A stretch of 64,000 bases of DNA. Origin: Cetobacterium sp. 2A (lineage in GTDB: Bacteria > Fusobacteriota > Fusobacteriia > Fusobacteriales > Fusobacteriaceae). Location of the stretch: positions 952,501 to 1,016,500 of the forward strand of contig NZ_JACFAJ010000006.1 of NCBI RefSeq assembly GCF_014250685.1, given 5' to 3'. The notes beneath the pieces were generated by a model that saw only the letters and a program-made list of their open reading frames with translations, did not search any database and was not told where the DNA came from. Positions 13,656 to 15,733 of the stretch are shown piece by piece; position 1 is the stretch's first letter; every line of letters begins with the position of its first letter. The translations under genes were made by a program, and so were the position numbers.

Positions 13656-14231
13656 ATGGAACTTTTGAACTCTTATAAAACAACTCTGGAGATGCTAGAG
13701 AAGTTTATAAAAGAAGAATCAAAGAGAAATGAGACAGAAAAAGTAGCTAAATCTTTATCTGAAACTTTTTTTGAAGGAAACAAAGTTTTAATATGTGGAA
13801 ATGGTGGAAGTAACTGTGATGCACTTCATTTTGCAGAGGAATTTACAGGTAGATTCCGTGGAAATAGAAGAGCTTTACCAGCTATAGCTTTATCAGATTC
13901 ATCACATATAACTTGTGTAGGAAATGATTATGGATTTGACTACATTTTTTCTAGAGGTGTTGAAGCTTATGGAAAACCTGGAGATATGTTTATCGGGATT
14001 TCAACAAGTGGAAATTCAGAAAATGTAATAAAAGCTGTTGAATCTGCAAAGAAAATGGGATTGAAAACAGTGGTATTACTTGGTAAAGATGGTGGAAAAT
14101 TAAAAGGAATGTGTGACCATGAATTTATAATTCCTGGTGCTACTTCAGATAGAATTCAAGAGATTCATATGATGATACTTCATATAATAATTGAAGGTGT
14201 AGAAAAAATAATGTTCCCAGAAAATTACTAG
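13656..14231 (+). CDS. gmhA: Phosphoheptose isomerase
   Basis: GmhA converts sedoheptulose 7-phosphate to D-glycero-D-manno-heptose 7-phosphate, the first step toward ADP-heptose for the LPS core. The 191-residue SIS-domain protein has GNGGSNCDALHFAEEFTG (about 48-65), which contains the family's active-site His and Glu, STSGNSENV (about 116) and a C-terminal QEIHMMILH helix with the second His. The diagnostic HFAEE and IQEIHM segments favour GmhA over DiaA. Its ribosome site is AGGAGG. It follows a LysR gene and ends at a good terminator. Confidence 0.9.
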   Translation: MELLNSYKTTLEMLEKFIKEESKRNETEKVAKSLSETFFEGNKVLICGNGGSNCDALHFAEEFTGRFRGNRRALPAIALSDSSHITCVGNDYGFDYIFSRGVEAYGKPGDMFIGISTSGNSENVIKAVESAKKMGLKTVVLLGKDGGKLKGMCDHEFIIPGATSDRIQEIHMMILHIIIEGVEKIMFPENY

Positions 14232-14233
14232 AG

Positions 14234-14259
14234 AAATGCCCTTGGTTGGGCATTTTTTT
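14234..14259 (+). terminator. Intrinsic terminator after gmhA
   Basis: Stem AAATGCCC/GGGCATTT (14234-14241 with 14248-14255), six-base loop, followed by more T residues to 14259. It lies three bases after the gmhA stop. Confidence 0.9.
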
Positions 14260-14291
14260 GTAACCTCTAAAAAATTTCAAGGAGGGGATTG

Positions 14292-15117
14292 ATGAAAAAA
14301 GTTATACGATTATTTCTGTTTTTTATTATTTCTGTTTTTGTCTATACTAGTGAAGCAAATATTGGAGTTTTTAATACTCTTAGGCTTGGTAAAAGCAAAA
14401 AAAAATTTTGAAATAATGGCTTCTGGTATAAAGAAATTTGAAATAATAGGATTAGTAGAAGTTATGGATGAAAAAGGACTTGAAAAGTTAGTAGATAATT
14501 TAGAAAAAGTTAGCAATAAAAAATGGGCATATCATATTTCTCCATATGCTGTTGGAACCGATGGATATAAAGAGTATTATGGATATGTTTATCAAAAAGA
14601 TAAAGTTAAATTTTTAGGAAGTGAAGGTTTTTATCCAGATCCTGGGAATAAATTAATAAGAGAGCCATATGCTGCTAATTTTAAAATAGATAATTTTGAT
14701 TTTACATTTGTTTTAATTCATTCTATTTTTGGAAAAAAAGAGAGTCAAAGAAGAGCGGAAGCCTTTCAATTTGATGACATTTATAAATATTTTCAAGAGA
14801 AAGATTCCAAAGAAAATGATATAATAATAGCTGGAGATTTTAATTTACCAGCAAATGATGAGTCATTTCAGCAACTGATGGATATTCCTGACAATATAAT
14901 CTATGCAATTGATCCTACAATAAAGACAACAATCGGAAGTAAAGGATTTGCGAATTCATATGACAACTTTTTTATTTCATTGAAATATACAAAAGAGTTT
15001 ACGGGTGTGAGTGGAGCTATAGATATTACAAATGGAAATTATATAGATACGAGAAAAAATGTATCTGATCATTTGCCTATATTTATGAAAGTACTTACAG
15101 GAGAAGATGATGACTAG
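14292..15117 (+). pseudogene. Secreted endonuclease/exonuclease/phosphatase-family protein, frame broken at an A9 tract
   Basis: The N-terminus and the body lie in different frames. The ATG at 14292, behind GGAGGGG, opens a frame with a Sec-type signal peptide and then NIGVFNTLRLGKSKK, and stops at 14409-14411. The body continues in the other frame with the DNase I-like fold motifs: GLVEVMDEKG (catalytic Glu), GYVYQKDKV, LIHSIFGKKESQRRAEA, IAGDFNLPAN and SDHLPIF at the C-terminus. One base fewer in the A9 tract (14397-14405) would give one continuous 274-residue exported protein. The out-of-frame TTG at 14338 is an unlikely start because it would yield a scrambled N-terminus. This could be a sequencing error, a real loss, phase variation or transcriptional slippage. 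The substrate (DNA, phosphoester or lipid) is unknown. Confidence 0.85.
14397..14405 (+). repeat. A9 homopolymer at the frameshift point
   Basis: Nine A residues followed by four T residues mark exactly where the two reading frames of the secreted nuclease-like gene must join. A length of eight restores the full frame; nine gives a 39-residue product. Confidence 0.9.
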
Positions 15118-15733
15118 AGCATATATATTTTTAAATGGTGTTGGAGAAAAAGAAGAATTTTATAAAAAATTAGATTTTAAAAATAGCTCGGTTTATTGTG
15201 CTGATGGTGGTTATAGGCAGTGTCTAAAAGCTGGAGCTATTCCTAAAGAAGTCTGGGGAGATTTTGATTCAGTTTCAGATTCAGAGTTTAAAGATTTAGA
15301 AGATAGTGATATAATTTTAAGAAAATTTAGTAAAGAAAAAGATTCTACCGATGGAGAATTATTGATAGAATATGTAAGTTCTAAAAATTACGATGAAATT
15401 TATGTGTTGTGTGGATTAGGAGGAAGATTGGATCATGAACTAACTAATATAAATCTTCTCTTCAAATATAAAAATATTAACATAAAAACAGAAAAAGAGC
15501 TTTTATTTTCGGTCGATAGAAAGTATACTTTTATTAACAAAAAAAATAAGATAATTTCATTTGTTCCCTTTTCAGATGAGGTAAGAAATATGAATTTAAA
15601 AGGATTTAAATATCCTTTAAATGATTACTTATTAAAAAGAGGAGATTCAAGATGTATGAGTAATATTGTATGTAGTGATGAAGCAACTGTAGATTTTAAT
15701 ACCGGAAGACTACTATGTATTCTAAACGATTAA
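15110..15733 (+). CDS. thiN: Thiamine diphosphokinase
   Basis: The enzyme transfers pyrophosphate from ATP to thiamine to make thiamine diphosphate. The protein of about 207 residues shows the family landmarks: CADGGYRQCLKAG (about 30), WGDFDSV (about 49), the acidic KDSTDGELLIEY (about 77) and GLGGRLDHELTN (about 98). Two adjacent ATGs (15107, 15110) overlap the stop of the preceding frame. The second has better spacing to GGAG. No TPP riboswitch fits upstream, because the start overlaps the previous gene. Some members of this family are annotated thiN, others tnr3-like. Confidence 0.87.
   Translation: MTRAYIFLNGVGEKEEFYKKLDFKNSSVYCADGGYRQCLKAGAIPKEVWGDFDSVSDSEFKDLEDSDIILRKFSKEKDSTDGELLIEYVSSKNYDEIYVLCGLGGRLDHELTNINLLFKYKNINIKTEKELLFSVDRKYTFINKKNKIISFVPFSDEVRNMNLKGFKYPLNDYLLKRGDSRCMSNIVCSDEATVDFNTGRLLCILND

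What the first reader, a model, noticed from the sequence alone, without database searches (positions are those of the whole stretch)
14292..15117. Secreted nuclease/phosphatase-like gene split exactly at an A9 tract
The signal peptide and first strand (NIGVFNTLRLGK) are in one frame and the catalytic domain with GDFN and SDHLP motifs is in another. The junction is an A9T4 run, and removing one A gives a clean 274-residue exported enzyme. All catalytic motifs are intact, unlike a decayed gene. In AT-rich genomes such runs can be expressed by transcriptional slippage or can switch by phase variation, so export of this enzyme may be toggled at this site.
Basis: partly seen in the sequence, partly recalled or inferred. 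Interest (0 to 1): 0.68.

Follow-up and report, generated by a model that had tools for sequence, protein, structure and literature searches.

The report
DNase gene frameshifted at A9 run
In this bacterium a secreted DNase I-like enzyme that is found, unbroken, in every well-sequenced member of its family has been knocked out of frame by one extra A in a run of A's; it is most likely a recent and easily reversed slip, of a kind already known, and not a special expression trick.

Summary
An ATG with a strong ribosome-binding site at 14292 opens a signal-peptide ORF that runs into an A9 tract (14397-14405) and stops at 14411 after 39 aa. The rest of the enzyme is open in another frame to 15117. 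It is a DNase I-like secreted nuclease (profile matches; predicted fold of an intact ortholog), single-copy here and present in 47 of 47 good genomes of the family, next to thiN. The sister species has A8 and an intact 274-aa frame at the same place, so one extra A is the whole defect. The body is pristine (50 of 51 family-invariant residues kept), so the slip is recent, or it is a consensus error. One correction: the catalytic Asn of strand 1 lies upstream of the tract, so neither ORF alone has a full active site. Rescue by slippage is poorly supported: only A8 or A11 transcripts restore the frame; the favoured +1 insertion and -1 ribosomal slip hit a stop at once. Of about 630 genes compared with the sister species, this is the only clear homopolymer break. 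The closest precedent is the A8/A9 switch of Bacillus swrA. Whether it toggles here cannot be tested from one assembly.

The parts
14229..14260 (+). intrinsic-terminator-like hairpin between the gmhA-like gene and the nuclease gene
   Evidence: fold -16.8 kcal/mol, z -4.5; a hairpin with a U-run is at the same place in the sister species and in 9 further relatives with gmhA upstream (L006-L013, L015), not clearly in L017, L023, L031
14279..14287 (+). ribosome-binding site of the nuclease gene (AAGGAGGGG)
   Evidence: read directly; matching SD in ortholog L002
14292..14411 (+). upstream ORF: signal peptide plus strand 1 with the catalytic Asn, 39 aa, ending TTT TGA just after the tract
   Evidence: N-terminus aligns to orthologs
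14397..14405 (+). A9 tract (A8 in the in-frame ortholog of the sister species), followed by TTTT
14404..15117 (+). downstream part of the DNase I-like domain (Glu of LVEV, YKEYY, REP, LIHS, GDFN, SYDN, SDHLP), in a different frame from the start
   Evidence: Pfam PF22669 E 8e-12, above cutoff; 47 of the 51 family-invariant columns lie in this part and 50 of 51 are kept overall
14416..14418 (+). ATG in the downstream frame, 4 nt after the upstream stop (TGA AATA ATG): possible re-initiation site giving a cytoplasmic protein without strand 1
   Evidence: read directly; its use is inferred
15107..15733 (+). thiN, thiamine diphosphokinase, overlapping the 3' end of the nuclease gene
   Evidence: TIGR01378 E 6e-51; follows the nuclease gene in the family relatives examined
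13656..14231 (+). SIS/gmhA-like gene upstream (named from its sequence, not scanned against a library)
   Evidence: same neighbour in many relatives

Best explanation
This is a normally intact, conserved, secreted DNase I-like nuclease gene in which the ancestral A8 run has gained one A (A9) by strand slippage, recently, in the sequenced strain. The start codon and signal peptide are still translated but translation ends at codon 39, so no active enzyme is exported. The change is of the swrA kind: one step back to A8 would restore the gene, so a culture may hold a minority of ON cells. Shown: A9, the split frame, A8 and an intact frame in the sister species, near-universal presence, a conserved body. 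Inferred: that the extra base is in the living genome, that it is recent, that it reverts.
For: The sister species has A8 in frame at the homologous site. 58 of 61 family genomes have the gene, 47 of 47 good ones, all without internal stops. 50 of 51 family-invariant residues are kept; under neutrality that allows at most about 2-3% substitutions per site since inactivation. Of about 630 genes compared this is the only clear homopolymer break, although 16 coding A9 runs lie in the compared genes. The strand-1 Asn and the rest of the active site are in different frames. Precedent: B. subtilis swrA, deletion 9 to 8 about 1e-4 and insertion 8 to 9 about 1e-5, PMC2831843.
Against: One assembly only; an extra A in A9 could be a consensus error. 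No second strain, no reads and no transcripts were available.
Confidence: 0.6

Rival explanations
1. Sequencing or assembly error: the real genome has A8 and an ordinary intact nuclease gene.
For: A homopolymer of 9 is the typical place for such an error; the gene is otherwise pristine and intact in all relatives.
Against: No other clear homopolymer frameshift among about 630 compared genes although 16 coding A9 and 162 coding A8 runs lie in the compared regions, so the assembly is not generally error-prone at such runs.
Confidence: 0.22
2. The A9 tract is bypassed at expression: RNA polymerase (or ribosome) slippage yields a useful amount of full-length secreted enzyme, as reported for poly(A) tracts of endosymbionts.
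For: AT-rich gene, A9T4 run, body conserved. Slippage rises with A/T run length in bacteria (PMC5574713; PMC3812077).
Against: Only A8 or A11 mRNAs restore the frame. Insertions dominate in A/T runs and deletions there are uncommon (PMC5574713; PMC6260861); +1 insertion and -1 ribosomal slip both run into ATT TTG AAA TAA (read). No stimulatory fold downstream (z -1.1). Relatives do not use a shift here.
Confidence: 0.1
3. Selected phase variation: the tract is maintained as an ON/OFF switch for nuclease export (and perhaps for thiN by polarity).
For: Tract near the 5' end, A8 or A9 in both species of the genus, length difference between them, swrA precedent.
Against: Other genera show no long run at the site; two Lys codons plus Asn give A8 easily in this genome (AAA 15795 vs AAG 3767); coding A>=9 runs are depleted about five-fold, 19 against about 94.
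Confidence: 0.07
4. Re-initiation at ATG 14416 or a TTG start at 14338 makes a deliberate cytoplasmic form.
For: TGA AATA ATG spacing favours termination-reinitiation; it could also keep ribosomes on the mRNA up to thiN.
Against: Such a protein lacks strand 1 and the catalytic Asn; no SD at either start; none of the relatives is arranged so.
Confidence: 0.01

Closest known systems
Bacillus subtilis swrA (A8 functional / A9 non-functional in laboratory strains)
   Same: one extra A in a 5' poly(A) run of 8 truncates the protein; one step restores it (PMC2831843; PMC3874003)
   Different: swrA is a regulator of motility with measured switching; here switching is not measured and the gene is a secreted nuclease
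Animal DNase I / DNase gamma (DNase1L3), EEP superfamily
   Same: best structural and sequence matches of the intact orthologs: 4awn E 1.2e-18, TM 0.76-0.80; DNase gamma E 3.8e-20; same catalytic residues
   Different: 22-24% identity; bacterial signal peptide; conserved acidic C-terminus DDD; activity not tested
MnuA membrane nuclease of mycoplasmas (NF045851) and ExeM/NucH (NF033681)
   Same: significant profile matches across the family
   Different: scores far below the curated cutoffs (75.6 of 185 and 37 of 300 bits)
Poly(A) slippage-rescued genes of Buchnera/Blochmannia (Tamas et al. 2008, as cited in PMC2831843)
   Same: AT-rich genome, frame broken at a poly(A) run, body conserved
   Different: the favoured slippage direction does not restore the frame here; no cDNA evidence

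Membership tests
DNase I-like nuclease (EEP superfamily) | four-layer alpha/beta DNase I fold | tested here: met
   AlphaFold model of the intact ortholog L002, pLDDT 92; top hits DNase I and DNase1L3; the window gene itself was not folded
DNase I-like nuclease (EEP superfamily) | catalytic residues Asn7, Glu39, Tyr76, Glu78, Arg111, His134, Asp168, Asn170, Asp212, Asp251, His252 | tested here: met
   all present across the two frames, Asn7 upstream and the rest downstream of the tract; DNase I numbering from general knowledge
DNase I-like nuclease (EEP superfamily) | DNA cleavage with Mg/Ca | not testable with these tools
   needs an assay
MnuA family (NF045851) | score above curated cutoff 185 bits | tested here: not met
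   75.6 bits for the window part, 89.6 for the ortholog
swrA-type homopolymer switch | tract length one base different between intact and broken alleles | tested here: met
   A8 intact in the sister species, A9 broken here; between species, not strains
swrA-type homopolymer switch | both alleles in one population, high reversion rate | not testable with these tools
   one genome of the species is held
Transcriptional-slippage rescue | favoured slippage products restore the frame | tested here: not met
   A10 and -1 reach TAA after ATT TTG AAA; only A8/A11 restore (direction bias)
Transcriptional-slippage rescue | mixed-length mRNAs and full-length protein | not testable with these tools
   no transcripts or peptides
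Programmed ribosomal frameshifting | conserved shift site and stimulator across relatives | tested here: not met
   the orthologs read through this position in one frame; no downstream structure (z -1.1)

The most novel reading that the evidence does not exclude
The A8/A9 tract is a kept contingency switch that turns export of a DNase I-like nuclease on and off in a fusobacterial lineage, and by translational polarity also changes expression of the overlapping thiN gene.
Probability: 0.07. Interest if true: 0.45.

Novelty: new member of a known kind. Interest (0 to 1): 0.2.

Why it matters
If the A9 is real, a family-wide secreted DNase is switched off in this strain by a one-base, easily reversed slip, and annotation pipelines will call it a pseudogene; strain differences in DNase phenotype could then come from a single tract. 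If it is an error, the gene is ordinary. In either case the split is not evidence for programmed recoding.

Tried and rejected
Second intact copy in the genome: none. Other frameshift candidates look like upstream small ORFs or overlapping gene pairs fused in one species; the one with a T8 (C3_182211) is a spurious antisense ORF. TTG start at 14338 as true start: rejected (no SD, loses the catalytic Asn, absent in relatives). Downstream stimulator structure: not significant. A local-identity test around each tract was too noisy in lysine-rich linkers to add anything. The terminator scanner missed the hairpin at 14229-14260, but folding found it. Papers on fusobacterial phase variation at homopolymers: nothing specific found.

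Full report
Observation. AAGGAGGGG and ATG at 14292 open an ORF with a signal peptide and the first strand NIGVFNTLRL; an A9T4 run follows and TGA at 14409-14411 ends the ORF after 39 residues. The rest of the enzyme is open to TAG at 15117 in another frame. Read with one base fewer in the tract the gene would have 274 codons before the stop, exactly the length of the intact ortholog in the sister species.

What the gene is. The body matches Exo_endo_phos2 (PF22669, E 8e-12, above cutoff) and, below their cutoffs, the MnuA and ExeM/NucH nuclease models. A profile of 25 intact orthologs finds DNase gamma (E 3.8e-20) and DNase I. The AlphaFold model of the sister-species ortholog (pLDDT 92, pTM 0.89) matches human and bovine DNase I best (E about 1e-18, TM 0.74-0.81). 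'DNase I-like secreted nuclease' is therefore better than 'nuclease/phosphatase'. Activity is not shown. Secretion rests on the look of the N-terminus in all orthologs, not on a signal-peptide program.

A correction. In the alignment with DNase I, the Asn of strand 1 (FN in NIGVFNTLRL) is the active-site Asn7, and it lies upstream of the tract; Glu (LVEV), YKE, REP, His (LIHS), GDFN, SYDN and SDHLP lie downstream (DNase I residue numbers from general knowledge). So the break parts the active site as well as the signal peptide, and no product of the downstream ORF alone should be a working enzyme.

Relatives. The gene is single-copy in its genome, found in 58 of 61 genomes of the family and in 47 of 47 that are at least 90% complete with at most 5% contamination, always without internal stops. 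thiN follows it in the relatives of the family that were examined, and a gmhA-like gene often precedes it. The only other genome of the genus has GGT AAA AAA AAT TAT at the site, that is A8, in frame. Other genera have no long A-run there.

How old is the break? The window gene keeps 50 of 51 columns that are invariant in the 25 orthologs (the exception is Gly127 to Ala), with no stop and no second indel. Counting the sites in the downstream part at which a change would alter an invariant residue or make a stop (about 145), neutral evolution since the break is limited to roughly 2% (no hits) to 3% (one hit) per site at 95%. The break is recent, or not real, or the gene is still used.

Is the assembly generally bad at homopolymers? 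Proteins from about half of the sister genome were compared with 1.25 Mb of this genome (634 genes compared in the final survey). The nuclease gene is the only clear frame break at a long homopolymer. The compared genes (592 after removing overlaps) contain 162 A8 and 16 A9 runs on the sense strand, the nuclease's own included. The survey would miss breaks within about the first 25 codons. This lowers the odds of a sequencing error but does not remove it.

Does the tract look selected? Against synonymous-codon shuffles of the 592 genes, runs of A>=9 are depleted about five-fold (19 observed, mean about 94, range 68-105), while A7 is not (620 against 546). Lys is mostly AAA and Asn mostly AAT, so A8 arises easily from Lys-Lys-Asn. 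Nothing singles this tract out as a maintained switch.

Could expression rescue it? Only mRNAs one base shorter or two bases longer restore the frame. In E. coli and Buchnera, insertions dominate in A/T runs and deletions there are uncommon (PMC5574713); E. coli RNA polymerase needs runs of at least 7 T and even longer A (PMC6260861). A one-base insertion, or a -1 ribosomal slip, leads into ATT TTG AAA TAA (read). The 100 nt after the tract fold no better than shuffles (z -1.1). Some bypass at an A8 repeat has been seen in the laboratory (PMC3812077), so a trace of enzyme cannot be excluded.

Most likely mechanism. An A8 run gained an A by slippage during replication, as in B. subtilis swrA, where the rates are about 1e-4 for 9 to 8 and 1e-5 for 8 to 9 (PMC2831843; see also PMC3874003). 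The strain as assembled is OFF. Two side effects are inferred, not shown: about 700 nt of untranslated mRNA ahead of thiN could reduce thiN through polarity, and re-initiation at ATG 14416 (TGA AATA ATG) could soften that while making a protein without strand 1.

Verdict. Real observation, ordinary cause: a recent one-base homopolymer frameshift in a conserved secreted DNase gene, or a consensus error at the same place. Read-level data decide between the two.

Noticed in passing
window 14229-14290; L002, L006-L013, L015 (75 nt before the nuclease start): An intrinsic-terminator-like hairpin with a U-run sits between gmhA and the nuclease gene, and in the relatives the ribosome-binding site of the nuclease abuts the U-run directly (e.g. 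ATACCC-TTTTTA-GGGTATTTTTTTT-GAGGTGAT). Stem sequences differ between species but pairing is kept; nuclease-thiN may depend on terminator read-through.
   Followed up: partly
C-terminus of the nuclease, window 15106-15114; last columns of alignment A1: The C-terminus ends in Asp-Asp-Asp in nearly all orthologs, even where thiN does not overlap (L018, L023, L029), in a part that the model shows with low confidence. The overlap with thiN alone does not explain the conservation.
   Followed up: partly
G000:C1 1-1250000: Coding runs of A>=9 are depleted about five-fold against synonymous shuffles, A8 only slightly.
   Followed up: yes
G000:C1 244614-245641; G001:C4 197282-198334: One 350-codon ORF in the sister species is two overlapping frames here, without a long homopolymer at the junction; either two genes or a frameshift.
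   Followed up: no
G037:C1 1195368-1196063 and 507941-508630: One relative carries two copies of the nuclease gene.
   Followed up: no
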